Source of the DNA: Brachionus manjavacas
Taxonomy: Eukaryota; Rotifera; Eurotatoria; Ploima; Brachionidae
DNA: 64,000 nucleotides
Direction: 5' to 3'
Assembly: GCA_019054805.1 (NCBI GenBank)
Contig: JAHQIY010000028.1
Coordinates: 806,001 to 870,000 of the forward strand
Part shown: positions 12,991 through 32,784 of the stretch, one piece after another
How the letters are laid out: each line of letters starts with the position of its first letter
Position numbering within the stretch: the first letter of the stretch is position 1
Program-made: the position numbers and the translations under genes
Notes under the pieces: generated by a model
Database searches by the model: none
Seen by the model: only the letters and a program-made list of their open reading frames with translations
What the model was told of the DNA's origin: nothing

Positions 12991-13565
12991 TTAAGGGATA
13001 ATGCCACTATCACAGATGCTCTGCGGATAGCAAAAACCATAACAGCAATTGGTACTTTCTTGATTGTTTGATACACTTTGACACTCACCTTTATTCAAAC
13101 AGGACTTGTATAACGTAATGGTAGTGGTCATTAAAATAGTCTCAGTAATTTTACTAGTCTGTTCCGATGCTTGATGATTAATTTTTATGATAGTTTCCTT
13201 ACTAAAGCTTTCTGTTACAGTTGTTTTAATTGTTTCTTTGCTATAATTATGTGCAATTACTGTTGTTTCTAAATCTGGTGATATTGGACCTAGAGAAACT
13301 GTTGTGATGGATGTAAAATTCGTTTTATCAAAATGGGTGGTTTCTCCGGTCTTTATTTTGGTATTACTTGTTGATAACTGAGATTGGGTTGAAAAATTAA
13401 AAAAATTTTTTGTTGAAAAGCAAATAGATTTGGTTTGATTAACATGATAAAAGAAAGTGAGATTAATATAACCTTCAAAAAGAATGTTTAAAATTTTAAA
13501 AAAAATTAACTTATTTCAATACTACCTAATAGCAAAAGAATGAGCACTGTAAAATCAATTTTCAT
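12991..13565 (-). CDS. small secreted Thr/Ser-rich protein with six-Cys C-terminal module (2 exons)
   Basis: The coding sequence is join(12991..13472, 13526..13565) on the minus strand, 173 aa. Exon 1 encodes only a hydrophobic signal peptide core (M-K-I-D-F-T-V-L-I-L-L-L-L). The 53-bp intron has donor GTAGT (13525-13521) and an AG at 13474-13473, with a phase-1 split Gly. The mature part is a Thr/Ser/Asn-rich stalk of about 120 residues with several N-glycosylation sequons. It ends in a cysteine module spaced C-x5-C-x11-CC-x3-C-x5-C, then the stop. The spacing resembles small disulfide knots of the knottin type, a fold used for many unrelated roles. No family is recognised and no function is assigned. 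A Helentron fragment begins within about 30 bp upstream of the ATG. Confidence 0.6.
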
Positions 13566-13592
13566 TGTATATAAATACGAATACACTGCATC

Positions 13593-14064
13593 ATTACAAT
13601 ACGAATACACTGGTATGACACAAAATAAATGCGTTGAATTGAGTCTATTTGAATTTGTTTGTCGTAAACATGACTTGAACGTCAAAAAAATCTATTTGCT
13701 TAACTTGTACAAACATCCCAAGTACGAAAACGAAATGTTTCTAGTCGATTTAGACAAATTCATTTCAAAATATTACACAAATAGCACTAATTGTTCACTA
13801 ATTGTAATGGGCGATTTTAACATTGATTTCAATCAAGCGTCAAACAAAAAGTATTTGCACTTTTTTAAACAACAATTCAATTTGGAACCGTATTTTGACA
13901 AGTGCAAAACACACAAAAACATATCACAATTGGACTGGTGTTTCTACAATAAACACAATCATATTTTTGCCACCGCCGCCAATCCAAATGCCGGTTTTCA
14001 CTCACAGCCTTACACGACTTGGTTCAGCGATCATTCGGCAATATTTAGTGAAATTACTTTTTAG
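13593..14064 (+). pseudogene. EEP endonuclease fragment, Helentron C-terminal domain
   Basis: The open frame runs from 13540, but homology to the array endonuclease begins near 13593. It retains G-D-F-N-I-D-F, the Q-L-D-W-C segment and the terminal W-F-S-D-H with I-T-F at the stop. These are the second half of the endonuclease/exonuclease/phosphatase fold. The N-terminal half with the catalytic Asn and Glu is missing, as are the Rep and helicase domains, so this is a dead 5'-truncated copy. It diverges from the array copies at many residues, indicating a separate lineage. Confidence 0.75.
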
Positions 14065-15057: not shown

Positions 15058-16646
15058 GGGTTGCCTAGATTTTTCGCTGATATATGAATATCAAGAAAAA
15101 AAAAATCTAGGTATTACGTTTGTCGTGTCCGTCCGTCCGTCCGTCCGTCCGTCCGTCCGTCCGTCCGTCCGTCCGTCCGTCCGTCTGTGGACACATTTAA
15201 CCCTAGTTTTTAGATAATAACCCTAGTTTTAAAAATGACAAAAAATATGTCGATCGATAGCATTGAATACATAAAAGGCGCGAAAAATCTAGGCAATCTA
15301 ATTTTTTAAAAATTAAACTTTAAATCGATCAATCACTAAAACAAAAATATTAATCAAAAAGATTAAAGTAATAAAAAATTTATTGACAACAAAAGTATGA
15401 ACTAAAAAAGAAAAAAAGAGAATTAAAATGTGATCTCGGTGAAAATAGCCTGATGATCACTGAACCATGTTGAATATGGCTGTGATTTAAATTGACCAAA
15501 AGAATGTGACTTGCTCGTTAGACACCAATCCAATTGAGACATATCCTTGAAAGTTAAACATTTGCTAAACACGGGTGTCATGTTCAAATTGTCTCTTAGC
15601 GTATCAAGATATTTAGAATTGTTTTCTCTATTAAAGTCAATATTGAAATCACCAAAGATTACCAAAGAGTCTTGGCTGTGCAAATTTAAATTCAAAAAGG
15701 CAATCAACTCTTGAATAAACTTGTCATTGTCCATCTTTGGATGCTTGTAAAGATTTAAAAAATAAACAACTGTTGAATTTAGAAAAGATTCAGCCTTTTA
15801 AATTGGTTTTTCTAATATATATTATATAATTTTATTTTTACTTTTAAAAAAAACTATTTCAAATAACCAAAATTGTTAATTATGGAATGGTTATTAATGA
15901 CATTGTATGGTGATGCAAATACAATCATTATTTAAAAATTCGTCAACATAATTTTTTTATCGATTTTTTTCCTAGCAACTAAAATTAATTTTTAGAAATT
16001 ATTATAAATTATTTTGTTGCAATATTTTTAGTTAAAAATCGGGTTTTTTTTCAAATTAAATAAAGAAAAAACAATTTGAAAAACATATTGTGTGCTTCAT
16101 AGAATTTCATTTATATATTTCGAAAAAATGGGGCGCAAAAAATAAGAAAGATTTAACATAAATATTCTCATAAATAAATTCTTAAATCATAATCCAAAAA
16201 ATAATTAATTGTTTGAGTTAAACCACTTATTGGTACAGGGTTCCGGTTAGGGAATTGCTCTAATTGATAGAAAAAAATTAGTGAGAACGGGGTCCGGGGC
16301 GGAGCCCTGGTTTAGGGTTCCGGGTATGCAGTAAGCTAGAGAACCATTAGTAAAAATTACTATTATTTTTGAATGTTAAATAATCTAATAATTATTAGTT
16401 ATTATTTTAGCATAAATATTCTCATAAATAAATTCTTAAATCTTAATCCAAAAAAATAATTAATTGTTTGCGTTAAACCACTTATTGGTACAGGGTTCCG
16501 GTTAGGGAATTGCTCTAATTGATAGAAAAAAATAATTAGTGAGAACGGGGTCCGGGGCGGAGCCCTGGTTTAGGGTTCCGGGTATGCAGTAAGCTAGAGA
16601 ACCATTAGTAAAAATTACTATTATTTTTGAATGTTAAATAATCTAG
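15058..16646 (-). mobile_element. array unit 1, non-autonomous (1.59 kb)
   Basis: Endonuclease tail at 15423-15734 and two ~257-bp subrepeats. 3' block of subtype A (TAGATAATAACCC, CAATCTA). One of the longer (GTCC)n tracts, about 14 copies. Subterminal repeats TTGCCTAGATTTTTCGC at 15061-15077 and its complement at 15280-15296. First unit of the array; its left edge joins a fragment of another Helentron family. Confidence 0.85.
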
Positions 16647-18226
16647 GGGTTGCCTAGATTTTTCGCTGATATATGAATATCAAGAAAAAAAAAATCTAGG
16701 TATTACGTTTGTCGTGTCCGTCCGTCCGTCCGTCCGTCCGTCCGTCCGTCCGTCCGTCCGTCTGTGGACACATTTAACCCTAGTTTTTAGATAATAACCC
16801 TAGTTTTAAAAATGACAAAAAATATGTCGATCGATAGCATTGAATACATAAAAGGCGCGAAAAATCTAGGCAATCTAATTTTTTAAAAATTAAACTTTAA
16901 ATCGATCAATCACTAAAACAAAAATATTAATCAAAAAGATTAAAGTAATAAAAAATTTATTGACAACAAAAGTATGAACTAAAAAAGAAAAAAAAGAGAA
17001 TTAAAATGTGATCTCGGTGAAAATAGCCTGATGATCACTGAACCATGTTGAATATGGCTGTGATTTAAATTGACCAAAAGAATGTGACTTGCTCGTTAGA
17101 CACCAATCCAATTGAGACATATCCTTGAAAGTTAAACATTTGCTAAACACGGGTGTCATGTTCAAATTGTCTCTTAGCGTATCAAGATATTTAGAATTGT
17201 TTTCTCTATTAAAGTCAATATTGAAATCACCAAAGATTACCAAAGAGTCTTGGCTGTGCAAATTTAAATTCAAAAAGGCAATCAACTCTTGAATAAACTT
17301 GTCATTGTCCATCTTTGGATGCTTGTAAAGATTTAAAAAATAAACAACTGTTGAATTTAGAAAAGATTCAGCCTTTTAAATTGGTTTTTCTAATATATAT
17401 TATATAATTTTATTTTTACTTTTAAAAAAAACTATTTCAAATAACCAAAATTGTTAATTATGGAATGGTTATTAATGACATTGTATGGTGATGCAAATAC
17501 AATCATTATTTAAAAATTCGTCAACATAATTTTTTTATCGATTTTTTTCCTAGCAACTAAAATTAATTTTTAGAAATTATTATAAATTATTTTGTTGCAA
17601 TATTTTTAGTTAAAAATCGGGTTTTTTTCAAATTAAATAAAGAAAAAACAATTTGAAAAACATATTGTGTGCTTCATAGAATTTCATTTATATATTTCGA
17701 AAAAAATGGGGCGCAAAAAATAAGAAAGATTTAACATAAATATTCTCATAAATAAATTCTTAAATCATAATCCAAAAAAATAATTAATTGTTTGAGTTAA
17801 ACCACTTATTGGTACAGGGTTCCGGTTAGGGAATTGCTCTAATTGATAGAAAAAAAAATTAGTGAGAACGGGGTCCGGGGCGGAGCCCTGGTTTAGGGTT
17901 CCGGGTATGCAGTAAGCTAGAGAACCATTAGTAAAAATTACTATTATTTTTGAATGTTAAATAATCTAAAAAATTATTAGTAATTATTTTAGCATAAATA
18001 TTCTCATAAATAAATTCTTAAATCTTAATCCAAAAAATAATTAATTGTTTGCGTTAAACCACTTATTGGTACAGGGTTCCGGTTAGGGAATTGCTCTAAT
18101 TGATAGAAAAAAAAATTAGTGAGAACGGGGTCCGGGGCGGAGCCCTGGTTTAGGGTTCCGGGTATGCAGTAAGCTAGAGAACCATTAGTAAAAATTACTA
18201 TTATTTTTGAATGTTAAATAATCTAG
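16647..18226 (-). mobile_element. array unit 2, non-autonomous (1.58 kb)
   Basis: Endonuclease tail at 17001-17312, two subrepeats, subtype A. The left junction reads AATAATCTAG|GGGTTGCC, retaining four more bases of the neighbouring subrepeat than most junctions do. Confidence 0.85.
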
Positions 18227-19540
18227 GGGTTGCCTAGATTTTTCGCTGATATATGAATATCAAGAAAAAAAAAATCTAGGTATTACGTTTGTCGTGTCCG
18301 TCCGTCCGTCCGTCCGTCCGTCCGTCCGTCCGTCCGTCTGTGGACACATTTAACCCTAGTTTTTAGATAATAACCCTAGTTTTAAAAATGACAAAAAATA
18401 TGTCGATCGATAGCATTGAATACATAAAAGGCGCGAAAAATCTAGGCAATCTAATTTTTTAAAAATTAAACTTTAAATCGATCAATCACTAAAACAAAAA
18501 TATTAATCAAAAAGATTAAAGTAATAAAAAATTTATTGACAACAAAAGTATGAACTAAAAAAGAAAAAAAAGAGAATTAAAATGTGATCTCGGTGAAAAT
18601 AGCCTGATGATCACTGAACCATGTTGAATATGGCTGTGATTTAAATTGACCAAAAGAATGTGACTTGCTCGTTAGACACCAATCCAATTGAGACATATCC
18701 TTGAAAGTTAAACATTTGCTAAACACGGGTGTCATGTTCAAATTGTCTCTTAGCGTATCAAGATATTTAGAATTGTTTTCTCTATTAAAGTCAATATTGA
18801 AATCACCAAAGATTACCAAAGAGTCTTGGCTGTGCAAATTTAAATTCAAAAAGGCAATCAACTCTTGAATAAACTTGTCATTGTCCATCTTTGGATGCTT
18901 GTAAAGATTTAAAAAATAAACAACTGTTGAATTTAGAAAAGATTCAGCCTTTTAAATTGGTTTTTCTAATATATATTATATAATTTTATTTTTACTTTTA
19001 AAAAAAACTATTTCAAATAACCAAAATTGTTAATTATGGAATGGTTATTAATGACATTGTATGGTGATGCAAATACAATCATTATTTAAAAATTCGTCAA
19101 CATAATTTTTTTATCGATTTTTTCCTAGCAACTAAAATTAATTTTTAGAAATTATTATAAATTATTTTGTTGCAATATTTTTAGTTAAAAATCGGGTTTT
19201 TTTCAAATTAAATAAAGAAAAAACAATTTGAAAAACATATTGTGTGCTTCATAGAATTTCATTTATATATTTCGAAAAAAATGGGGCGCAAAAAATAAGA
19301 AAGATTTAACATAAATATTCTCATAAATAAATTCTTAAATCATAATCCAAAAAAATAATTAATTGTTTGCGTTAAACCACTTATTGGTACAGGGTTCCGG
19401 TTAGGGAATTGCTCTAATTGATAGAAAAAAAAATTAGTGAGAACGGGGTCCGGGGCGGAGCCCTGGTTTAGGGTTACGGGTATGCAGTAAGCTAGAGAAC
19501 CATTAGTAAAAATTACTATTATTTTTGAATGTTAAATAAT
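18227..19540 (-). mobile_element. array unit 3, non-autonomous, shortest full unit (1.31 kb)
   Basis: Endonuclease tail at 18577-18888 and a single subrepeat, subtype A. It shares the CTAG-extended left junction of unit 2, so units 2 and 3 probably arose by duplication. It directly precedes the autonomous copy. Confidence 0.85.
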
Positions 19541-19887
19541 GGGTTGCCTAGATTTTTCGCTGATATATGAATATCAAGAAAAAAATCTAGGTATTACGTT
19601 TGTCGTGTCCGTCCGTCCGTCCGTCCGTCCGTCCGTCCGTCCGTCCGTCTGTGGACACATTTAACCCTAGTTTTTAGATGTTAACCCTAGTTTTAAAAAT
19701 GACAAAAAATATGTCGATCGATAGCATTGAATACATAAAAGGCGCGAAAAATCTAGGCAATCTAATTTTTTAAAAATTAAACTTTAAATCGATCAATCAC
19801 TAAAACAAAAATATTAATCAAAAAGATTAAAGTAATAAAAAATTTATTGACAACAAAAGTTGAACTAAATAAGAAAAAAAAAGAGAA
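19541..19887 (-). promoter_or_regulatory. 3' terminal region of the autonomous Helentron: hairpin, (GTCC)n, subterminal inverted repeats
   Basis: Contains the hairpin CCTAGATTTTT/AAAAATCTAGG with inner TGATAT/ATATCA complementarity, the GTGTCC/GGACAC pair flanking the (GTCC)n tract, and TTGCCTAGATTTTTCGC with its inverted partner about 200 bp inside. In Helitron-type transposition a 3' hairpin marks the end of strand transfer. That role is inferred here from family knowledge. Confidence 0.65.
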
Positions 19888-20628
19888 TTAAAATGTGATC
19901 TCGGTGAAAATAGCCTGATGATCACTGAACCATGTTGAATATGGCTGTGATTTAAATTGACCAAAAGAATGTGACTTGCTCGTTAGACACCAATCCAATT
20001 GAGAAATATCCTTGAAAGTTAAACATTTGCTAAACACGGGTGTCATGTTCAAATTGTCTCTTAGCGTATCAAGATATTTAGAATTGTTTTCTCTATTAAA
20101 GTCAATATTGAAATCACCAAAGATTACCAAAGAGTCTTGGCTGTGCAAATTTAAATTCAAAAAGGCAATCAACTCTTGAATAAACTTGTCATTGTCCATC
20201 TTTGGATGCTTGTAAAGATTTAAAAAATAAACAACTGTTGAATTTCCCTTTTTAAATTTGAATAAACTCAATTCAACACATTTCGATTGATTAATGCCCG
20301 AATACTCAAACCCTGTGGATGCATTGTGTGCAACTAATTCAAAATTGTCAACAAGTGATTTTTCCTTGCGTATTAAACATATTTGTCCATTTGAACAATT
20401 TAAATTGATTCCACTTGAATAATAAACAAGGTGATAATTGTCAAATAATAATTTTGCTTCATTTTGTCTAAAATTTTTTCTATTGTGACATTCACTTAGA
20501 AAAATAACATCAGCTTGCTTATATCCATAATCATATTTGACATTTTCTTTGTTTGAATTAAACGATTGAATATTTTGAAACATTATTGTCAAATCACTTG
20601 TTCTCTTCAACTCAAAACCATAGTCCAA
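19888..20628 (-). CDS. EEP endonuclease domain of the Helentron replicase (C-terminal part)
   Basis: 246 codons. The first codon of the open frame is TTG and overlaps the end of the helicase frame by 17 bp in another frame, so this is the C-terminal domain of one polyprotein separated by a one-base frame break near 20,626 (a T4 run), not an independent gene. Catalytic features of the endonuclease/exonuclease/phosphatase fold: Q-N-I-Q-S with Asn19, S-E-C with Glu46, G-D-F-N at 171-174, and W-F-S-D-H with Asp236-His237. This is an apurinic-like endonuclease domain, the diagnostic extra domain of Helentrons. The last 103 codons (from the internal Met144) are the part kept in the short array units; this copy has Ile where most have Met in K-D-x-S-Q. 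Confidence 0.85.
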   Translation of the reverse strand: MDYGFELKRTSDLTIMFQNIQSFNSNKENVKYDYGYKQADVIFLSECHNRKNFRQNEAKLLFDNYHLVYYSSGINLNCSNGQICLIRKEKSLVDNFELVAHNASTGFEYSGINQSKCVELSLFKFKKGNSTVVYFLNLYKHPKMDNDKFIQELIAFLNLNLHSQDSLVIFGDFNIDFNRENNSKYLDTLRDNLNMTPVFSKCLTFKDISQLDWCLTSKSHSFGQFKSQPYSTWFSDHQAIFTEITF

Positions 20629-23600
20629 AAGAGTAATGGTTTCTCATGTTAGCATTCGATCTTAGTCTATTCATTTCAATGCGAACCGGATCATTTTGTT
20701 CAAACAATTGCAATTCTTTTTCTCGTTGTTCTTTGGACAATCGTTGAACACGTGCACTCTCAATCGAAAGACTGCCATACAAATACAAACCAGTCAGCTT
20801 AGTTGCTCTACTCAATGCTACATACAACAACGATCGTTTCAAACTGTCTCCAATGAACACAGCAACACATGTATACGATTGTCCCTGTGATTTGTGTATG
20901 GTCATTGATTCACATTCAATCAAAGTAAATTGTCTCCTATCCACGCGATAATTGCCACCCGCTTTTGGTCTTTTAATTGTCTGTTGTTCGTAAACCAACG
21001 CAGTCAAATGTGGATCTATTGTTTCTTTTAGAATCAATGCATCATCTCTCATCCATTTAAGTTGATCGTTTTCATTTCGTGACAAATGACCAACATCTTT
21101 ATCTGCAAATTCCAAGTACACTCGTTTAACCAATGGCTTTACGTCTGTTTTTTTCTTTGTAAAAACAATATGTTTCAAACACCCAACTGCACCATTCACT
21201 AGACCATCTTCTGTTCGCACATTTGTTGTCATCATGTATTTGCAGTTGACTTTAAATCTCAACAATGTAGGCATTCCACATGTTTTATTCATGTCCATTT
21301 CATTTCTAAGACTTGCCACTAGGTTTTTTGCTTTATTTGAATTTTTCTCTTTGCCTTGAGCCAAATCAATTGCTCGATTTTCAATTAAATCACCAGGCAT
21401 TGATCTCAACTTGTAATCGTTGTATTCATTCACTCCTTTATTTGAATGAATAACACAAATAGCTTCTCTTGGTATTTGATCAATGAGAACAATGCGTGAA
21501 TTAAACATTCTCACTTGTTCTTCACTCAAACCTATAACACCTTTGTTTCCAAGTGTATTAAGAGCTTCAGCAAACACTGCATCGTCACGTTGTCTCATTA
21601 TTTCCTTGAGTTCAACAAATTCAAACTTGTGCCACAACAAATCACCTGCCAAAATCGAATAGCCACTCTCTCCTCTAGATCTTTCAAATATCCAACTGTC
21701 TTGCACTGGACATATTTGATTTAAATCACCAACAACAACAATAGATATATTGCCAAATGGCTTTGAATTGTCCATTATTTGCATTAAACGCTTATTTAAT
21801 TTCGAAAATAAATTGCTTCCGACCATCGATATTTCATCAATTATTAATAATTTTACTTTTTTAAATAGCTTTCGCACTTTTGTCAATAAATTTTCTGACA
21901 ATCTGTCCATATTGTTTGTATGAATTGGAAAATGGAACAATGAGTGCAAAGTTGATCCTTTAATGTTAAAAGCTGCTTTGCCAGTAAATGCTGACAAGAG
22001 AACAGTAATAGAAGTTGGATCATCGATATTGTCACTATTTATTCTTATAAACGTTTGATATAACGACTTGATTAGATGAGACTTACCAGTGCCCGCACCA
22101 CCACTAACAAAATGATAAAATGGCTCTGTTGATCGTACACAATCGATAAAATTTGACAAATACTTGTGTTGAATACGATTAAGAGACTTCATCAATGTTG
22201 CATATTCATCATTTGTTGTTCGCTTTGGCAAAATTATCGAATCACAATCGGCATTAATCATACTTTGCAAATTACTAATTTCATCTTGAATAACAGCATG
22301 ATATCCAAATTCATCTTCAATTTCTTCATTTCTCGCTTCATTTGCATTCGTCACAAGGTTTTCATTTGCTTCATTCACTCGTTCCACATAATCTTCGACC
22401 ATACGTTCATAATGCTCTTGTATTTCTGTTTCCAAATCATTTATAGCTTTATCAAACTCTTCTGCCACAACAGATTCAAAGCGTGCACGATTATTACCTA
22501 TAATTGTCTTGTTGAGCTCAAATATTTCAAATGTATCTTTTACTTCAACTTCTTTTTTTTCATTTCTCCACGGGTGAAACAACATTATTTCAACACGATA
22601 GTAATTTTCCGGATCTTTTATTCGATTATATCTTTTGTAACGCAATATTTTACACTTGTTTCTTTTTTTTACATATCCATCGTTATTTTTCAATTTAATC
22701 AATTTTGAATTACTTGCTATTTCAACAGTGTCAGAAACATCATCGTCTTCACCAGTGTTCGTTTCAACTCTTGCCAATTGTTCATTTTCAAAATAATAAT
22801 TGTTGTCATCTTCGTCCAAATTTTCGTCTTCTTCTTCTTGAAATCGTCCAACTCGAGTCAAATCGTTTGGATCTTTTGCTCTTTCTCTTGAAAAATAGTC
22901 AAAGTAAGTGGCAAATTCGGCCAAACACATTCTTTCCATTTCAATAGGTCTATTAACATAATGCTGAAGTATGCCAGCTCGAAATATGTTTTTGGATTCA
23001 GGATTCATTATTTCCAAATAGCGATCCTCCTTAAGTATAACATTTCTTTCTTTGGAAGGAAATGTATTTACGTAAATGGTTTCACGAGATGTTCGCGACA
23101 CTGGCATACTCAACAATGTATATGTACACTCTTGAGCTGATATTTCACAACAATTGTTAAACTTGTTGGCTACCTTTAACAAACGTTGTTTAACACTCAA
23201 ATTTCCACGCACCACTTCCTCAACAGTATTTTTAAGTAGTCGTGACATTGAAGCATTTGATTTGAGCATGTACGCTGACACATAAGCTGCAGCACCATAC
23301 GGATCAGTAATAAATTGAATGTCCATATTTGCTCTGTGACGAACATAAATGGGTTTATTGTATGGATTAACCATTATGTCATTAGATGATCTTTTTAAAA
23401 AGACTGTAGATCTTTTAATAGAACGTGAAAGTGCCCTCAAATAATCAATTTCATTTAATCCTATCATTTCTAAAAATTGTTCAAAATTAATTGAATATGA
23501 TGAGTTACTTTTGAATTTTGTATTTATTTCATTCAATTTCTCTCTTATCATTAGAAAATTTTCGTAAGCCTTGTGAAAATCGTTATCATCTTTTTTCAAA

Positions 23601-24706
23601 GGCTCTAATATTGTTGTTTTGTCCAGAATGGGCCATGGAAATCCATACTTGCACAAAATGTTACCATGATCATCGGTAATTTTACAGTTACTTTTGTGCA
23701 CATGAACTTGATACTTCAAAGGTACCTCTTGCAAAATACAACTACGATTCTCATAATCGTCTTCCTCAATCATATTGTTTGCTGGACACTTTGACGTTAT
23801 GTATTTATCAATAAATTCGGCACAATTTTTGACCAATTCACTTTTGTCTTGCAAATCTTCATCATATTTTAGAGCATCTATATTCCATGTTATCATATGA
23901 ATGTGAGGACTTCCACGATTTTGAAATTCCACACGCCAAAAGTAATCAAACACAGGATTTTCTTTAAAGGGTCCATTCAAATTGAAAATGTATTTGAGCA
24001 ATTCGCCCATTCTATTTTCAAAATATCTTGCCACAGTGATTGGATCACGACTTACCATTTCAATACGCTTGTCTCTTGTTATGTTAGTCAATTCATCATC
24101 TGAAAGATATTTATTGTCGAGCGTTTTCGACAATACTTGAATCAATTCATTCCAATCTATTTCTGCCGGACTCAATGTAATAAAAAACGACGGACAGCCC
24201 AATTGACGAATCATTGCATTTATTTCCATTTTTTTCCACTCCCAATACTGTGGACTTGATCTTATTGTACGCAAAAACATTTGTGCTTCATTTCGAACTA
24301 TTAAATCATTTATTTTTTGTTTATTTAGAGCATCACGTGCGGTCAGCGATTCAATTTCTTGGGTTTTTCTCAAGCATGTGTCTATGGCTGCATTTAGTTT
24401 TTTGCTCACCAATTTCTTGTACGAATAAAACAATTTATTTATGTCATTGGCACAACGTCTGTCAAATCGACGAAATTCCGACTTGCATCTCATTCCGTAT
24501 TTGATTTGTAATTTTGGTTGAAACTTTTCACCACCATATATTTTAATAAATGTCAACTCTTCAGCATCTTTATCTGAAAGAATTGATCTTGGCTGAATAC
24601 CTTCGCCTGGCGCTATTGTCTTTACCAAATCGTTGTTGTCAAACAAAAGAGTAGGTTGTGCATTTTGAAATTGTTCAACATAATCAGCGTCTTCATTTCT
24701 TTTTTC
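20612..24706 (-). CDS. Helitron Rep nuclease plus PIF1-family helicase (central part of replicase)
   Basis: About 1,360 codons open on the minus strand. The stretch conventionally started at the TTG at 24646 gives 1,344 aa. The frame continues upstream to about 24706, where it meets the preceding segment. Residues 50-170 match the Helitron_like_N region, including P-S-F-F-I-T-L-S-P. The HUH motif is P-H-I-H-M at 247-251. A putative Zn-binding stretch (H-V-H-K-S-N-C, then C-K-Y-G-F-P-W-P) lies at 314-339. The two catalytic Tyr are Y455 and Y459 (Y-V-S-A-Y-M-L-K). Acidic and coiled linkers occupy 600-800. Helicase motifs: Walker A G-G-A-G-T-G-K-S at 849-856, I-I-D-E-I-S-M at 935-941, V-V-G-D-L-N-Q at 971-977, M-T-I-H-K-S-Q-G near 1250 and V-A-L-S-R-A near 1277. 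All key residues are present. The protein nicks and unwinds DNA for rolling-circle transposition in the nucleus. Confidence 0.93.
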   Translation of the reverse strand, partial: EKRNEDADYVEQFQNAQPTLLFDNNDLVKTIAPGEGIQPRSILSDKDAEELTFIKIYGGEKFQPKLQIKYGMRCKSEFRRFDRRCANDINKLFYSYKKLVSKKLNAAIDTCLRKTQEIESLTARDALNKQKINDLIVRNEAQMFLRTIRSSPQYWEWKKMEINAMIRQLGCPSFFITLSPAEIDWNELIQVLSKTLDNKYLSDDELTNITRDKRIEMVSRDPITVARYFENRMGELLKYIFNLNGPFKENPVFDYFWRVEFQNRGSPHIHMITWNIDALKYDEDLQDKSELVKNCAEFIDKYITSKCPANNMIEEDDYENRSCILQEVPLKYQVHVHKSNCKITDDHGNILCKYGFPWPILDKTTILEPLKKDDNDFHKAYENFLMIREKLNEINTKFKSNSSYSINFEQFLEMIGLNEIDYLRALSRSIKRSTVFLKRSSNDIMVNPYNKPIYVRHRANMDIQFITDPYGAAAYVSAYMLKSNASMSRLLKNTVEEVVRGNLSVKQRLLKVANKFNNCCEISAQECTYTLLSMPVSRTSRETIYVNTFPSKERNVILKEDRYLEIMNPESKNIFRAGILQHYVNRPIEMERMCLAEFATYFDYFSRERAKDPNDLTRVGRFQEEEDENLDEDDNNYYFENEQLARVETNTGEDDDVSDTVEIASNSKLIKLKNNDGYVKKRNKCKILRYKRYNRIKDPENYYRVEIMLFHPWRNEKKEVEVKDTFEIFELNKTIIGNNRARFESVVAEEFDKAINDLETEIQEHYERMVEDYVERVNEANENLVTNANEARNEEIEDEFGYHAVIQDEISNLQSMINADCDSIILPKRTTNDEYATLMKSLNRIQHKYLSNFIDCVRSTEPFYHFVSGGAGTGKSHLIKSLYQTFIRINSDNIDDPTSITVLLSAFTGKAAFNIKGSTLHSLFHFPIHTNNMDRLSENLLTKVRKLFKKVKLLIIDEISMVGSNLFSKLNKRLMQIMDNSKPFGNISIVVVGDLNQICPVQDSWIFERSRGESGYSILAGDLLWHKFEFVELKEIMRQRDDAVFAEALNTLGNKGVIGLSEEQVRMFNSRIVLIDQIPREAICVIHSNKGVNEYNDYKLRSMPGDLIENRAIDLAQGKEKNSNKAKNLVASLRNEMDMNKTCGMPTLLRFKVNCKYMMTTNVRTEDGLVNGAVGCLKHIVFTKKKTDVKPLVKRVYLEFADKDVGHLSRNENDQLKWMRDDALILKETIDPHLTALVYEQQTIKRPKAGGNYRVDRRQFTLIECESMTIHKSQGQSYTCVAVFIGDSLKRSLLYVALSRATKLTGLYLYGSLSIESARVQRLSKEQREKELQLFEQNDPVRIEMNRLRSNANMRNHYSFGLWF

Positions 24707-25407
24707 TAACCCTTGTAAATTTGGATAAAGTCTTTTAAATTACCCGAAGCCAATAATCTATCTTCATTATTTACAATGAAATCTTCAGTCAAATCCACAT
24801 TGTCAAAATCTTTATGTTTCTCGAACCATTCCGTTGATAATTTTATGTTATTCTCTTTGAAAAGGGGCCTATTAAGCAAATATCTAATTGCTTTTAAAAT
24901 TAAATATGGTCGTATTGAATCGAACATATAAGGTTTTGTATAGTCCATTCTCCTTTTTAATACCAACTGAATTGTTTCGGATTGTTCAAATGAACGCGGA
25001 AGAATTTCCAATGTTTTTTCTGTATCAATTGGTACATTTACTACATTACCAGATATTTTTTGTTGATGATCCCAATTAACCAATTCTTTGATACGCATAA
25101 ATGGAAGTCTTGGCGAACACAAGCGTTCTTCAACTTCATTTAAATGTTTTAATTCGTCTGGAACAACTGGGAATTGTAATCCATTTGACAATGCGAGATT
25201 TGGTATTTTGTTTTCTCTCACATATTTAGAACAAGTAACACAAATCCAATTAAAACCACATTCCGATTTTATATCTACATTAAATATTTGATTGAACAAA
25301 CTGTTATTTCTACTAAGTGTGAACTTATTTACTGTTCTCTTAAAAAAGACCACCACAACAAACACAAGCAAACGACGGACCATTTTGAATTCCTTCTTCA
25401 TAAACAT
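24706..25407 (-). CDS. Helitron N-terminal Cys region (DUF6570-like), middle segment of replicase
   Basis: Probable coding use is about 24,707-25,347. The open frame overlaps the previous one at its upstream end (25340-25407) and the Rep frame at its downstream end. It contains a C-x2-C pair (I-C-V-T-C-S-K), then P-N-L-A-L-S-N-G-L with P-D-E-L and the L-P-F-M-R-I stretch. These are hallmarks of the DUF6570 region that precedes Helitron_like_N in many animal Helitrons. Together with the C-V-C-C just upstream it may bind zinc. It is one base out of frame with both neighbours, and the two shifts compensate (+1 at the T6 run near 25,345, then -1 near 24,706). It has a complete open frame, so the domain is not decaying. 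Sequencing error, a fresh indel pair and frameshifting all remain possible. Confidence 0.75.
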   Translation of the reverse strand: MFMKKEFKMVRRLLVFVVVVFFKRTVNKFTLSRNNSLFNQIFNVDIKSECGFNWICVTCSKYVRENKIPNLALSNGLQFPVVPDELKHLNEVEERLCSPRLPFMRIKELVNWDHQQKISGNVVNVPIDTEKTLEILPRSFEQSETIQLVLKRRMDYTKPYMFDSIRPYLILKAIRYLLNRPLFKENNIKLSTEWFEKHKDFDNVDLTEDFIVNNEDRLLASGNLKDFIQIYKG

Positions 25408-27972
25408 CTATCAAAAATTTAATATTTGATCTTTGATTTCGTTTACTAATTGAATTTCTAGCTTGTTCTTCAATCCTAAAAGTTTCATTTGATCTTCTAT
25501 TTCTGTGTTGTTCGGTATTTGACAATTGTTCTTGCATTCTGTATTCAATATTTTTTCTTCTTAATGCATGCTCGATTGTGTTTGTTATTTGTTCATCGTT
25601 TCGATATATGGAATTACTTCTTCTTAATTGATGTTCTTCAGTGTTTCTTAGCTGTTCTTCTTCTCTGTATTGTGGATCGAGTCTTCTTAGTTGATGTTCT
25701 TCAGTGTTTCTTAGCTGTTCTTCTTCTCTGTATTGTGGATCGAGTCTTCTTAGTTGATGTTCTTCAGTGTTTCTTAGCTGTTCTTCTTCTCTGTATTGTG
25801 GATCGAGTCTTCTTAGTTGATGTTCTTCAGTGTTTCTTAGCTGTTCTTCTTCTCTGTATTGTGGATCTGTTCTTCTCATTTGATGTTCTTGAGTGTTTCT
25901 TGATTTCTCAAAATTTCTATATGCTTGATCTTGTCTTCGTAATCTATGCTCTTGACTATTTCTGATTTGTTCATTGATCCTATATTCGACATCGTTAATT
26001 CTTTTATTTTTTTTAAGAAAAGTGTTTTTTAATTGTTCGTATTGTTTTTCGTACAAATCTTCACGTTTAACTTGTTTACTTATTTTTTGTATTGATTTTT
26101 CGACATTTCTATAATTTTCATCTTCTCTTTTCTTTCTCATCCATTCTCTCTTGTATTCTTTTCGTTTATCATGCTGTGATATATTTTCTGGAGTTTGACT
26201 AATTTCTTGCAATCCAAACTCCCTATCAGATTCTATGATTTTCATTTCAACACTTGTTTTTTGGATAGAAAATGACATTTTTTCATCCTCTAATGATTGA
26301 AAACTCATATGAGAATCATGTCTTTGTTTTCTATTTGCTTGCGCACTAGCTGAATTATCCGGAATAACCGGCCTTACAACATTGACACGTCGAATTTGAT
26401 TTTGGGATCTTCTATTCAATTTGTAAAATAAAAGGTAACATTGATTTGTACTCATATCAATTGTTTGTTTAAATTGATTTAGGCTCGGAAAAACTTTAAT
26501 ATTTTCGTCGTCAAAATAATGCCAATTATTAGATTTTGAACGAACCAATGCTTTGAAAAATAATAATTAATTAAGTTTTTAAAATATTTAAATTAAAAAT
26601 AGGTCAAAATAAAAGATCCAATTAAAAGAATTTTATTTAATTTGACTAATTACAAAAAAATATGAATTAAAATTAATAAGCTAACCCTATACTTCTATTA
26701 AGCCGAAATCCCTAAACCGGGGCTTCGCCCCAGACCCCATTAAGACTTCAATTTTGTTAAAATAAAATCAAGCCTAAAATAAACCCTAATTTGTCAAAGC
26801 TCAAGACGTCTGGCGACGTCTCTCGCTTAGCCAAACTATGGTTTATTTTAGGCTTGATCTAATTAAACAGGAGTTATTTTTTTTTTAAATTGTTTTAATT
26901 GGAATATTTTCTTTTACTGATATTGTTAAAAGCTTACTTACAAGTATAATGTCCCGAGTTTGATGCGTCTCCAAGATGAAAACAAATTGATGTTAGCTCA
27001 TAAATTCTGTCATTTAAATTTGAAACTTTATATTTGCTCAAGTTTAATTCTTCTTGAAAATCAATAGAATTTGACAATTTTCTAACAGTCCCAAAATTAT
27101 CTATCTTTTTTTTAAATAGAAATTTGATAAAAATTTGGAAAAAAATTTGTATAAAATTAAATTACTCTAAATCTTTTGAGCATTATAATCAAATTGTCCT
27201 TCATTGCATTTAATTTTGAACTTGAAGTAAAGGTTTGATTTGAATTGCACTGATTGCAAAACGTATCCTCAATCAATTCATCACGAATAAATATTTCCAA
27301 ACAATCGTTTATTGATTTACAATTCGAATCCATTGGCAATTGTAAGCAAAGATTTGTAGAAGTGATTTGTTTTTGATGCATTGAATTTTTGCCACATTTC
27401 ATTTTCTGCATTGTTTCGAATATAAAGCTTTGACTCATTAGATTATGAGTAAACTTGAAATTTTCAAAGACATCTTCTAAACGATCGGTTGATCTAAGTC
27501 CTCGTTTTCCAATCTCAATCTCAATTACACATTCATCTATGTAACCCATGAATTGTATGAGAAATTCATGAGCATCGTGCTGATTAAATTGTGTAAAAGT
27601 CTCACTTAATTTCGACTCGTACAATTGATCGAAAAAATTTTGATACAAATTTTTAAATTCTTTTTGTTTCAGTCTTTTTGTTAAATTCAAACCTTCGTAC
27701 ACAAAATTAACATATGTATCAACCAAATTGTACTCGTCTTGATCATAGGCAAATTGATGTTGGTATTTGTGTTCAATAACATTTTTTAATACCATGTCGA
27801 ATGAATTAATGCATTGAACTATTGAACCGACAAAACAAGTGTTAATTAAATTTGGAATTCCTTTGCCAACAAAGGAAGAATTTCGATCGTAGTCAAAGTT
27901 TGTCAATAGTAAATTGTTTCTAAACAATTGATTGATCGAATTAATTTTGCTTCTTGTTAATTGTCTGCTCAT
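25340..27972 (-). CDS. USP-type deubiquitinase domain spliced to Helentron replicase N-terminus
   Basis: Exons: 27166-27972, 26942-27104, and 25340-26550 (continuing into the replicase). Introns of 61 and 391 bp have GT/AG ends (GTAAT, GTAAGT) and preserve phase. Exon 1 has the USP Cys box with Cys46 in G-I-P-N-L-I-N-T-C-F, two Cys pairs of the finger region (including C-N-Q-C), and ends at I-M-L-K-R-F-R. Exon 2 carries the His box (C-F-H-L-G-D-A-S-N-S-G-H-Y-T). Exon 3 opens with L-V-R-S, then W-H-Y-F-D-D (third triad residue) and Y-L-L-F-Y-K, the normal end of a USP fold. It then runs without a stop into a basic coiled region and 21-residue repeats typical of Helitron N-termini. All catalytic residues are present at about 385 aa, which is compact but complete. 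It likely cleaves ubiquitin from the transposase or from host factors; the substrate is unknown. Frame ends at a T6 run. Confidence 0.85.
25560..25930 (-). repeat. 63-bp coding minisatellite (21-residue repeats) in replicase N-terminus
   Basis: Three near-identical 63-bp copies (about 25,680-25,868), plus one slightly changed and several degenerate copies on each side. Each encodes R-N-T-E-E-H-Q-L-R-R, then L-D-P-Q-Y-R-E-E-E-Q-L. The charged, regularly spaced pattern suggests an extended helix or coiled coil. Comparable Arg/Glu-rich repeats precede the Rep region in many animal Helitrons. The open plus-strand frame across it is an antisense shadow. Confidence 0.8.
26705..26745 (-). repeat. 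GC-rich motif related to the subrepeat core
   Basis: On the minus strand it reads GGGGTCTGGGGCGAAGCCCC followed by GGTTTAGGG. Array subrepeats carry GGGGTCCGGGGCGGAGCCC then TGGTTTAGGG on the plus strand. The two match at most positions over about 38 bp in opposite orientation, in otherwise AT-rich DNA. Confidence 0.6.
26767..26858. mobile_element. 92-bp foldback (MITE-like) element inside the intron
   Basis: Perfect 19-bp terminal inverted repeats, ATCAAGCCTAAAATAAACC (26767-26785) and its complement (26840-26858). They flank a centre with a second palindrome, AGACGTC-TGGC-GACGTCT. It is too short to code. It could be a tiny MITE or a structured intronic element. No clear target-site duplication was seen. 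Confidence 0.6.
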
Positions 27973-28116: not shown

Positions 28117-30050
28117 TTAGGCATATTCAACATTGCCTTTTGAATAATTGCCATATTTTACTTTGCTAAAATAAAAGTAAATCAAATAAATGGTAATAGT
28201 TACAAGAAATAAAATTCCAAAAAATATTAAAATTGTTGAAAAAAATTTCTTATCAGATCATTAATATTTCCAATTTTGTTTGCAAACCATTGCACAATTT
28301 TTCCCATTGAATTGGTTTCGATCAAATTTCCATTTACGTCCAATTTTGAAAGCTCTTTTGGCGAGTCCATTACAATAAATGGCGAATTAAAAAATAACGA
28401 TTCATCTTCCAAAATATGTATGTTCTCAATAAAGTCCGTTCCGTTCAACAAGTACGCGTGATGATCGTATAAATTTTTTAAATCGCCTGTTTTCAATTTA
28501 AAATCAGTAGAATGGTGAGTTAAATTTGAAATGCGAATAGTATTCTGTGACAATCTTTCCACTAGAACTGCTTTTTTATTTGACATTCTTAACATTATTG
28601 ATTGATCACATTCGACAGTTTTTTTTGAATATTGGGTTATTATGTTATTTGGCCGTATGTAACCTGGTCTGAAGTTTTTGAATTTTGAATACGATATTCA
28701 ATTGGCAAATGTTTGGTGCATTCTTTTGAATTAACTTTATTTTTGATTCGAATTTTGTCGATTTTCGAACAAAGTGGTATAAATACTTGGCCATTGTTTA
28801 TGTAAAAAAGGAAATTTTTATTATCTTTTAAAACAAAATAAAAAATTCAAATTATTAAATAAAAAAGTAATTTAATATTTATTACCTATATGCGTTAGAT
28901 TCAAGAACGTATCTTCTAGATGAAGATTTTGTTTAATTGAATTGATAAAAATGCTACAATGCAATTGTTTAATCATTTCCAACATAACAAATGTTTTATA
29001 GTCTTGTTCAGAAACTAAAAGCCTATTTTTGTCTTTCTCTGTAAAATGACTTAATGAGTACTTTGATGTGGGAAGGTTTTCAAGCTTATCCTTAATGACT
29101 TGGCTATTAGCGTGTAAGATTTGATACATCCCATCATGCGCCTGGTGGAAAACCCCAGGGTAGAAAGAAAGGTAGAGTCCCTCTGATGTTTTCCAAAAAT
29201 CAAATCCACAATCTTTAACATAACCAGTCACCATAAAAAGATAATTTACTTTTGACGAATAAAGAACTAATCTTTTAATCCCATTATTCACTTTATCCAT
29301 TTTAATCATATCATCAAAATGTAATAATCTTTCATATTGACAATTGTGAATATCCTTTCTATCCCATATTATTGTACTTTGAGGCATTTTACAAAATTCA
29401 TCTTCGGCATAGCATGGTTCAATTGAGTTGTGAAAAATATTTTGATTTTTATTTTGAGCGAATACAATCTTTTCATTGAAATGACATTCGTAAAAAGTTT
29501 TTTCAATTGTTCCAAAATAAAATGGATATTTTTCGACAACATCTTGTGAAAACGAGCAAGTGTTATTGTTAGTACATAGCATATTGAATTTTTTATTCGA
29601 AAAGCCACACTGTTTTTCCTTAAACATTTGAACACAATCATGTTTAGATAAATAAATTTTTTCTAAATCATTTTGAACATATTTATTGAAGAAAATATCT
29701 CTACTAAATTTATATTTTCGCACTAACATTCTACATTCGATTCCTTTTGTCTCTAAAATAAAATTATGCTTGGAAAAAACGTATCCATGTGAACCTATGG
29801 AATGAATGTCACCTTCTAACCCACCTGAATTCTGCTCTTCTTTACCTTTCAAAGCTTTTATTGAAAACTCATGCACAGATTTACTAAAAGACTCCATAAA
29901 ACAATCATTCTCTAAATTTAGCATATTCAAATGGTTGTTAACGATACACATTTTGAAATCGCCCAAGATTTGTTCATAAAGTTGACTTTTGTTTTTTACA
30001 ACAATTATTGCCATTAAAATCAAAGCTTGGGTAAAATAAAGTCTAACCAT
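28117..30050 (-). CDS. envelope-like type I membrane glycoprotein carried by the Helentron (interrupted)
   Basis: The first open segment is 28872-30050 (392 codons) from an ATG followed by a hydrophobic signal-peptide-like N-terminus (residues about 4-18). The ectodomain is rich in Cys (about 15) and has a few N-glycosylation sequons. Its stop lies just past a GT donor-like site near 28,884 with an AG acceptor-like site near 28,830, so a short intron is plausible. A second open segment is 28227-28595. A third short frame then encodes about 24 hydrophobic residues and a short tail ending at 28117. At least one frame interruption lies in an A/T run near 28,240 and another is likely near 28,620-28,660. 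The order signal peptide, Cys-rich ectodomain, membrane-proximal amphipathic stretch, single anchor, short tail is that of a viral-type fusion or attachment glycoprotein. No specific virus family could be assigned by eye, so a captured host receptor-like gene is the alternative. Confidence 0.5.
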
Positions 30051-30937
30051 TTTGAAGAAAATTTAAAATGAAACTTTCTCTTAGGAAAAATTCAGCCTTT
30101 TAAATTGGTTTTTCTAATATATATTATATAATATTATTTTTACTTATAAAAAAACTATTTCAAATAACCAAAATTATGGAATGGTTATTAATGGAATTGT
30201 ATGGTAAAGCAAATACAATCATTTTTTAAAAATTCATCAACACAATTTTTTTTATCGATTTTTTTCCTAGCAACTAAAATTAATTTTTAGAAATTATTAA
30301 TAATTATTTTGCTGAAATATTTTAAGTTAAAAATTGGGTTTTTTTCAAATTAAATAAAGAAAAAACAATTTGAAAAGCAATTTGTGTGCTTCATAGAATT
30401 TCATTTATAAATTTCGAAAAAAATGGGTCGCAAAAATAAAAAAGATTTTAGCATAAATATTCTCATAAATTAATTCTAAAATCTTAATCCAAAAAAATAA
30501 TTAATTGTTTGCGTTAAACCACTTATTGGTACAAGGTTCCGGTTAGGGAATTGCTCTAATTGATAGAAAAAAAATTAGTGAGAACGGGGTCCGGGGCGGA
30601 GCCCTGGTTTAGGGTTCCGGGTATGCAGTAAGCTAGAGAACCATTAGTAAAAATTACTATTATTTTTGAATGTTAAATAATCTAAAAAATTATTAGTAAT
30701 TATTTTAGCATAAATATTCTCATAAATTAATTCTAAAATCTTAATCCAAAAAAATAATTAATTGTTTGCGTTAAACCACTTATTGGTACAAGGTTCCGGT
30801 TAGGGAATTGCTCTAATTGATAGAAAAAAATTAGTGAGAACGGGGTCCGGGGCGGAGCCCTGGTTTAGGGTTCCGGGTATGCAGTAAGCTAGAGAACCAT
30901 TAGTAAAAATTACTATTATTTTTGAATGTTAAATAAT
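30051..30937 (-). promoter_or_regulatory. 5' noncoding region of the autonomous Helentron with two subrepeats
   Basis: Subrepeats at 30451-30707 and 30708-30937, followed in minus-strand order by about 360 bp homologous to the 5' block of every short unit. Compared with the short units it carries many substitutions and small deletions (for example AAGCAAAT in place of ATGCAAAT near 30,208), whereas the 3' end of the same element matches the array closely. Both subrepeats are the AAGGTTCC / TTAATTCTAAAATC variant that dominates the expansions in units 18 and 20. A TATA-rich stretch at about 30,117-30,135 could serve the envelope-like gene. Confidence 0.6.
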
Positions 30938-32784
30938 GGGTTGCCTAGATTTTTCGCTGATATATGAATATCAAGAAAAAATCTAGGTATTACGTTTGTC
31001 GTGTCCGTCCGTCCGTCCGTCCGTCCGTCCGTCCGTCTGTGGACACATTTAAGCCTAGTTTTTAGATAATAACCCTAGTTTTAAAAATGACAAAAAATAT
31101 GTCGATCGATAGCATTGAATACATAAAAGGCGCGAAAAATCTAGGCAATCTAATTTTTTAAAAATTAAACTTTAAATCGATCAATCACTAAAACAAAAAT
31201 ATTAATCAAAAAGATTAAAGTAATAAAAAATTTATTGACAACAAAAGTATGAACTAAAAAAGAAAAAAAAGAGAATTAAAATGTGATCTCGGTGAAAATA
31301 GCCTGATGATCACTGAACCATGTTGAATATGGCTGTGATTTAAATTGACCAAAAGAATGTGACTTGCTCGTTAGACACCAATCCAATTGAGACATATCCT
31401 TGAAAGTTAAACATTTGCTAAACACGGGTGTCATGTTCAAATTGTCTCTTAGCGTATCAAGATATTTAGAATTGTTTTCTCTATTAAAGTCAATATTGAA
31501 ATCACCAAAGATTACCAAAGAGTCTTGGCTGTGCAAATTTAAATTCAAAAAGGCAATCAACTCTTGAATAAACTTGTCATTGTCCATCTTTGGATGCTTG
31601 TAAAGATTTAAAAAATAAACAACTGTTGAATTTAGAAAAGATTCAGCCTTTTAAATTGGTTTTTCTAATATATATTATATAATTTTATTTTTACTTTTAA
31701 AAAAAACTATTTCAAATAACCAAAATTGTTAATTATGGAATGGTTATTAATGACATTGTATGGTGATGCAAATACAATCATTATTTAAAAATTCGTCAAC
31801 ATAATTTTTTTATCGATTTTTTCCTAGCAACTAAAATTAATTTTTAGAAATTATTATAAATTATTTTGTTGCAATATTTTTAGTTAAAAATCGGGTTTTT
31901 TCAAATTAAATAAAGAAAAAACAATTTGAAAAACATATTGTGTGCTTCATAGAATTTCATTTATATATTTCGAAAAAAATGGGGCGCAAAAAATAAGAAA
32001 GATTTAACATAAATATTCTCATAAATAAATTCTTAAATCATAATCCAAAAAAATAATTAATTGTTTGCGTTAAACCACTTATTGGTACAGGGTTCCGGTT
32101 AGGGAATTGCTCTAATTGATAGAAAAAAAAAATTAGTGAGAACGGGGTCCGGGGCGGAGCCCTGGTTTAGGGTTCCGGGTATGCAGTAAGCTAGAGAACC
32201 ATTAGTAAAAATTACTATTATTTTTGAATGTTAAATAATCTAAAAAATTATTAGTAATTATTTTAGCATAAATATTCTCATAAATAAATTCTTAAATCTT
32301 AATCCAAAAAATAATTAATTGTTTGCGTTAAACCACTTATTGGTACAGGGTTCCGGTTAGGGAATTGCTCTAATTGATAGAAAAAAAAATTAGTGAGAAC
32401 GGGGTCCGGGGCGGAGCCCTGGTTTAGGGTTCCGGGTATGCAGTAAGCTAGAGAACCATTAGTAAAAATTACTATTATTTTTGAATGTTAAATAATCTAA
32501 AAAATTATTAGTAATTATTTTAGCATAAATATTCTCATAAATAAATTCTTAAATCTTAATCCAAAAAAATAATTAATTGTTTGCGTTAAACCACTTATTG
32601 GTACAGGGTTCCGGTTAGGGAATTGCTCTAATTGATAGAAAAAAAAAATTAGTGAGAACGGGGTCCGGGGCGGAGCCCTGGTTTAGGGTTCCGGGTATGC
32701 AGTAAGCTAGAGAACCATTAGTAAAAATTACTATTATTTTTGAATGTTAAATAATCTAAAAAATTATTAGTAATTATTTTAGCG
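30938..32784 (-). mobile_element. array unit 5, non-autonomous (1.85 kb)
   Basis: Endonuclease tail at 31276-31587, three subrepeats, subtype A with a private change (TTTAAGCCTAG). Its hairpin end abuts the 5' end of the autonomous unit. Confidence 0.85.

What the first reader, a model, noticed from the sequence alone, without database searches (positions are those of the whole stretch)
25340..27972. A Helentron replicase that begins with a complete, spliced USP deubiquitinase domain
Seen: the USP Cys box (Cys46), His box (G-H-Y-T) and F-D-D triad residue are spread over three exons whose GT/AG junctions keep frame. The third exon runs from the USP end (Y-L-L-F-Y-K) straight into the Helitron N-terminal repeats. 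Known: animal Helentrons often carry an OTU-type cysteine protease, also a deubiquitinase. Inference: an unrelated deubiquitinase fold has taken the same position, suggesting that removing ubiquitin is a recurring need of these elements, perhaps to stabilise the transposase.
Basis: partly seen in the sequence, partly recalled or inferred. Interest (0 to 1): 0.88.

Follow-up and report, generated by a model that had tools for sequence, protein, structure and literature searches.

The report
Transposon with deubiquitinase and fusion-protein gene
A rolling-circle transposon, probably in a rotifer genome, encodes its replication enzyme joined to a ubiquitin-removing enzyme and carries beside it a gene resembling a viral membrane-fusion protein, which hints at how such elements may protect themselves and perhaps travel.

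Summary
The window copy is frame-broken downstream, but another copy has one 2,143-aa frame from the USP end through Rep and helicase. Of 22 USP exon-1 copies in this genome, 19 have Rep downstream. A Brachionus calyciflorus protein holds UCH, DUF6570, Rep, PIF1 and endonuclease in one chain, and a metagenomic Helentron carries a USP at its C-terminus instead. Helentrons with OTU or tegument-type deubiquitinases are published; my searches found none with a USP. Best reading: a Helentron lineage whose replicase carries its own deubiquitinase, probably protecting itself or its partners from degradation, plus a captured fusogen of unknown use. Transcription and activity are untested.

The parts
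30081..31275 (-). 5' leader with GTCC microsatellite, shared with the internally deleted tandem units
   Evidence: 31275-30081 aligns with the truncated unit (94.8% over 1223 columns); microsatellite
28872..30062 (-). Glycoprotein ORF, N-terminal part (396 aa from stop to stop; first Met at the 5th codon)
   Evidence: model pLDDT 67.1, pTM 0.52; class III fusogen fold matches; Rhabdo_glycop_FD E 0.019 in the window's own row, below the curated cut-off, matched by 9 of 10 relatives at E<=1, best 5.7e-5
28227..28697 (-). Second ORF, counterpart of the C-terminal part of the glycoprotein (156 aa here, 226 aa in the C52 copy); pieces kept apart
   Evidence: no Pfam match; counterpart of P0088 beyond the first ORF by reading
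27166..27972 (-). USP exon 1: Cys box, QHDAHEF, CNQC, LKRF
27105..27165 (-). Intron 1 (61 nt, GT-AG)
26942..27104 (-). USP exon 2: His box GHYT
   Evidence: collinear with P0001
26551..26941 (-). Intron 2 (391 nt, GT-AG; retention gives an immediate stop)
25340..26550 (-). Exon 3: USP end (WHYFDD, YLLFYK), charged 21-aa repeats (63-bp tandem repeat 25619-25901) and start of a CxCC motif; ends in a stop in this copy
24706..25407 (-). Next segment in another frame: DUF6570
   Evidence: Pfam PF20209 E 6e-19
20612..24739 (-). Rep (Helitron_like_N, 23891-24367) and PIF1 helicase (about 21578-22183), 1375 aa
   Evidence: Pfam E 4.3e-27 and 8.6e-33; place C28:829891-830367
19888..20643 (-). Exonuclease-endonuclease-phosphatase (AP-type) endonuclease, the Helentron mark
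   Evidence: Pfam PF03372 E 3.9e-7
18577..19887 (-). 3' tail and start of the next, internally deleted unit
   Evidence: 97.3% and 99.7% to the truncated unit

Best explanation
This is a Helentron (rolling-circle transposon) of a lineage with two genes in one orientation. The first encodes a class III viral-type fusion glycoprotein. The second encodes one long protein: an N-terminal USP deubiquitinase assembled by splicing of three exons, charged 21-residue repeats, DUF6570, the Rep nuclease, a PIF1 helicase and an AP-type endonuclease. SHOWN by sequence: the USP domain with its triad, its frame continuity with Rep (in other copies), the linkage across copies and across species, and the glycoprotein lying inside the element. 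INFERRED: the USP is an active cysteine isopeptidase that, because it is covalently attached to the replicase, works where the replicase works. It most likely strips ubiquitin from the replicase itself or from partners at the replicating DNA, so keeping a large, rare protein from the proteasome long enough to nick, unwind and copy. INFERRED: the window copy no longer makes the whole protein, while other copies carry unbroken stretches of it.
For: UCH over the full profile in the spliced protein; splice model first of 3,850 combinations; triad residues. C18 copy: one 2,143-aa frame from the USP tail through DUF6570, Rep, PIF1 and into the endonuclease start (Pfam, the endonuclease by reading since its Pfam match there is weak, E 0.22). 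C52 copy: one 1,571-aa frame from the USP tail into the helicase. 19 of 22 USP exon-1 places have Rep downstream within 6 kb, 18 of them at 1.8-2.9 kb. P0001, a B. calyciflorus protein: UCH 14-311, DUF6570 675-800, Helitron_like_N 950-1115, PIF1 1713-1882, Exo_endo_phos_2 2382-2500, collinear with the window protein across both window splice junctions. Constraint: window against C18 pN/pS 0.357 in USP exon 1, 0.245 in Rep-helicase. P0097: a USP at the other end of a metagenomic Helentron. Published precedent: zebrafish Helitron VTD domains cleave ubiquitin chains (PMC9741609, passages).
Against: No transcript or enzyme assay. The window copy is frame-broken, and in the C18 copy I found by reading no in-frame GT-AG junction between USP exons 1 and 2. 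P0002 lacks the His box, so at least one relative, or its gene model, looks inactive. The USP part of exon 3 shows little constraint (pN/pS 0.895, only 42 codons), and synonymous sites are saturated for exon 1. C18 reads GHIT instead of GHYT. Nothing tests what is deubiquitinated.
Confidence: 0.6

Rival explanations
1. The USP is real and fused, but its main task is on host proteins at the DNA (histones, PCNA, repair or silencing factors), so that it opens chromatin or blocks a silencing or damage response instead of stabilising the replicase.
For: Fusion to a DNA-bound replicase would deliver the USP to chromatin (inference). Several deubiquitinase folds recur in Helentrons, which fits any shared ubiquitin obstacle. 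For OTU in Helentrons a chromatin role has been suggested (PMC4067079, passages).
Confidence: 0.22
2. A captured host gene fragment: the USP is passenger sequence picked up by Helitron-style gene capture, with no role for the element.
For: Helitrons often capture gene fragments; P0002 has lost the His box; weak constraint in the exon 3 part of the USP.
Against: In-frame fusion to Rep in a named second species; one supported clade of rotifer Helentron USPs apart from the six host USPs tested (96/98); pN/pS 0.357 in exon 1 over a comparison with saturated synonymous sites; triad kept in the window, P0001 and P0097.
Confidence: 0.1
3. Two separate genes: the USP and the Rep are neighbours, and the fused model is an annotation accident; each has its own transcript.
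For: Frame breaks in the window between exon 3 and Rep; introns needed to assemble the USP; no RNA data.
Against: The USP tail and Rep share one open frame in two copies; the USP needs exon 3 for its Asp, and exon 3 has no stop before Rep in those copies; P0001 and P0002 are annotated as single chains.
Confidence: 0.06

Closest known systems
Helentrons with OTU and/or VTD (herpesvirus tegument-like) deubiquitinases (PMC9741609, PMC4067079; passages read)
   Different: Here the added domain is a USP (Pfam UCH), built by splicing, at the N-terminus; no OTU or Herpes_teg_N match in the window proteins scanned. A viral-type glycoprotein gene lies in the same element.
B. calyciflorus proteins P0001 (2506 aa) and P0002 (2529 aa), named only 'unnamed protein product / ATP-dependent DNA helicase'
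   Same: UCH, DUF6570, Helitron_like_N and PIF1 in one chain; P0001 is 52% identical over the queried Rep stretch.
   Different: P0002 lacks the His box; their records carry no USP or Helentron description that I saw.
Mavericks/Polintons of nematodes with a putative fusogen (PMC10680173, passage read)
   Same: A DNA transposon that carries a gene resembling a viral fusogen.
   Different: Mavericks also encode capsid proteins, DNA polymerase and integrase; none was seen among the six window ORFs scanned.
Rhabdovirus, nyavirus and chuvirus glycoproteins, and herpesvirus gB (class III fusogens)
   Same: Predicted fold of ORF 28872-30062 and weak Rhabdo_glycop_FD similarity.
   Different: Sequence identity is about 7-15% in the rows shown, and it sits in a transposon with no nucleoprotein or polymerase among the ORFs scanned.

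Membership tests
Helentron | Rep domain (Helitron_like_N) | tested here: met
   E 4.3e-27
Helentron | PIF1-type helicase | tested here: met
   E 8.6e-33
Helentron | C-terminal AP-type endonuclease fused to Rep-helicase | tested here: met
   PF03372 E 3.9e-7 in the next ORF of the window (other frame); in one chain in P0001 (Exo_endo_phos_2)
Helentron | Subterminal inverted repeats and palindrome near the 3' end | tested here: inconclusive
   Inverted repeats present in the leader and tail, e.g. 27-nt arms 85% complementary around the GTCC microsatellite; true element ends not mapped
Helentron | Rolling-circle transposition | not testable with these tools
   Head-to-tail units fit it but do not prove it
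USP (peptidase C19) deubiquitinase | Full UCH domain | tested here: met
   profile 2-254 of 254, E 2.7e-30
USP (peptidase C19) deubiquitinase | Cys-His-Asp/Asn triad | tested here: met
   Cys46, His321, Asp337/338
USP (peptidase C19) deubiquitinase | Two CxxC zinc ligand pairs (lost in some USPs, recalled) | tested here: inconclusive
   one pair whole, the other reduced to one Cys
USP (peptidase C19) deubiquitinase | Cleaves ubiquitin | not testable with these tools
   needs an assay
OTU- or VTD-type Helentron | OTU (PF02338) or Herpes_teg_N (PF04843) domain in the element | tested here: not met
   no match in the six window proteins scanned; of 12 OTU places in the genome none lies within 10 kb of a Rep place, by comparing
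Class III viral fusion glycoprotein | Fold | tested here: met
Class III viral fusion glycoprotein | C-terminal membrane anchor | tested here: inconclusive
   hydrophobic stretch near the C-terminus of the C18 ORF and of P0087/P0088, by eye only
Class III viral fusion glycoprotein | Fuses membranes | not testable with these tools
   -

The most novel reading that the evidence does not exclude
This lineage is a partly virus-like Helentron: it keeps a class III fusogen under at least weak constraint and a deubiquitinase fused to its replicase, and uses the fusogen to pass its circular DNA between cells or individuals in membrane vesicles, with no capsid of its own.
Probability: 0.15. Interest if true: 0.95.

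Novelty: new variant of a known kind. Interest (0 to 1): 0.74.

Why it matters
A third unrelated deubiquitinase class (USP) in Helentrons, attached at either end of the replicase in different lineages, turns the published guess that these elements need ubiquitin removal into a comparative pattern that can be tested with one mutant residue. A fusogen gene inside a Helentron would give a concrete route for the frequent horizontal transfer of these elements, which so far has no carrier of its own.

Tried and rejected
Own-genome search with the whole Rep-helicase protein was asked seven times and never answered, machine busy; copy counts therefore rest, which the tool calls lower bounds.

Viral contigs: 53 stretches matched a glycoprotein pattern, none encoded a relative, so no close free virus was found there. 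PDB by sequence: no match to the glycoprotein ORF at E<=1.

Herpes_teg_N search of the genome rang nowhere, controls included, so it shows nothing.

Is the glycoprotein just a flanking gene? Rejected: internally deleted units join the leader (to 30081) directly to the endonuclease end (from 20245), so the glycoprotein, USP and Rep all lie inside the element.

One origin of all Helentron USPs: not resolved. The three rotifer rows form a supported clade (96/98), but the five Helentron rows form one group in only 40% of bootstrap trees, and P0040 and P0097 are long branches.

A telomeric position: the last 600 bases of contig C28 that I printed are the same satellite. TTAGGG occurs 23 times in the last 4.2 kb; in the printed stretch it lies within the satellite unit, not in a run. 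Not shown.

Rows dropped: 26 of 34 glycoprotein rows (second pieces left out), 22 of 82 USP rows (one exon-1 piece per copy; exon 2 and 3 pieces, second pieces and host-like USPs left out) and 53 of 83 Rep rows were typed in. Three USP places without Rep all lie in the first 5 kb of contig C4; one of the 19 has Rep 5.0 kb away.

Full report
WHERE. The window is G000:C28:806001-870000 of a 114.2 Mb genome in 61 contigs.

THE OBSERVATION. Splicing 27972-27166, 27104-26942 and 26550-25340 gives a 726-aa frame with a full UCH domain, E 2.7e-30, aa 38-366. Cys46, His321 and Asp337/338 fall in the three different exons. The B. calyciflorus protein P0001 is collinear with the window across both junctions. 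Retaining intron 2 puts a stop directly after the His box.

THE FUSION. In the window the frame stops at 25340, and DUF6570, Rep-PIF1 and endonuclease continue in other frames. These breaks belong to this copy. On contig C18 one 2,143-aa frame runs from the USP tail (WHYFDD, ILFYK) through repeats, DUF6570, Helitron_like_N and PIF1 into the beginning of the endonuclease (the endonuclease start is by reading, its Pfam E there is 0.22). On contig C52 a 1,571-aa frame runs from the USP tail into the helicase, where that copy has a break of its own. Across the genome I listed 22 USP exon-1 places; 19 have a Rep place downstream on the same strand within 6 kb, 18 of them at 1.8-2.9 kb and one at 5.0 kb. 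Outside the genome, 3 of the 80 homologues carry UCH (P0001, P0002, P0040), and of the 13 two do (P0002 again, and P0097). P0006 and P0008 begin with what reads like a USP tail (by eye).

RECURRENCE. P0097, an unnamed metagenomic Helentron of 2,252 aa, has its UCH domain at 1986-2246, behind the helicase and endonuclease (the endonuclease of P0097 is by reading). The USP has therefore been attached at either end. Among the 80 proteins, precomputed Pfam lists OTU in 4, Herpes_teg_N in 5, C48 in 1 and none of these or UCH in 67; P0098 has OTU and Herpes_teg_N together. Whether the N- and C-terminal USPs are separate captures is not settled by the tree; the different position argues for it.

SELECTION. 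Window against C18: pN/pS is 0.357 in USP exon 1 (269 codons, synonymous sites saturated), 0.262 in DUF6570, 0.245 in Rep-helicase, 0.895 in the exon 3 part of the USP (42 codons) and 0.645 in the C-terminal glycoprotein ORF. The replicase is clearly constrained, USP exon 1 moderately; the last two are weak evidence.

MECHANISM. Fusing a deubiquitinase to the replicase places the activity where the replicase acts. Self-protection from the proteasome is the simplest reading and matches what the authors of PMC9741609 proposed for VTD Helitrons, whose zebrafish domains cleave K48 and K63 chains (passages). Protection of host partners or chromatin effects cannot be told apart here. The glycoprotein needs another explanation: capture from a negative-strand RNA virus, as other transposons have done, with possible use in cell-to-cell transfer. 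The Maverick precedent is from a meeting report (PMC10680173, passage).

NOVELTY. Literature: 'Helitron' with 'deubiquitin' (10 papers), 'ubiquitin-specific protease' (6) and 'ubiquitin carboxyl-terminal hydrolase' (3): I read passages of PMC9741609 only and saw the others as listings. 'Helitron' with 'fusogen' (11), 'Helentron' with 'glycoprotein' (3), 'Helitron' with 'glycoprotein' and 'rotifer' (4), and a five-term query (0): passages of PMC6431247, PMC10175614 and PMC10680173 read, the rest as listings. None describes a USP or a fusogen in a Helentron in what I saw; subscription papers and preprints are mostly outside this library.

Noticed in passing
window 15423-18951 and 31276-62878, minus strand: 19 head-to-tail, internally deleted units of the same element, each with a 124-aa endonuclease remnant, many with inserted arrays of a 255-260 bp satellite and a GTCC microsatellite: a transposon turning into satellite DNA.
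   Followed up: partly
genome-wide, e.g. C4:1-26000, C14 start, C16 end, C28 end, C52: 21 of the 22 USP exon-1 places lie within about 50 kb of a contig end or on contigs under 150 kb; only the C1 copy is internal. This may be a subtelomeric preference or only assembly breakage at repeats.
   Followed up: partly
G000:C4:75-22764: Three head-to-head inverted pairs of USP exon 1 (75/2244, 3696/5893, 20275/21940) without a glycoprotein match listed on this contig.
   Followed up: no
window 13510-14064, plus strand: Endonuclease remnant that reads nearly the same as that of the C18 copy, a second and older Helentron subfamily, in the opposite orientation.
   Followed up: no
G000: C26:578601, C32:176803, C6:1302305, C3:1259940, C37:363857, C10:2205675, C11:583196: Distant glycoprotein relatives (23-30% identity) with no USP of this family nearby: other integrated viral-type glycoprotein genes.
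   Followed up: no
P0037, P0025: Helentron proteins with a Ulp1-type C48 domain (P0037, precomputed Pfam) and an OTU-like motif at the C-terminus of an Adineta ricciae protein (P0025, by eye, motif recalled).
   Followed up: no
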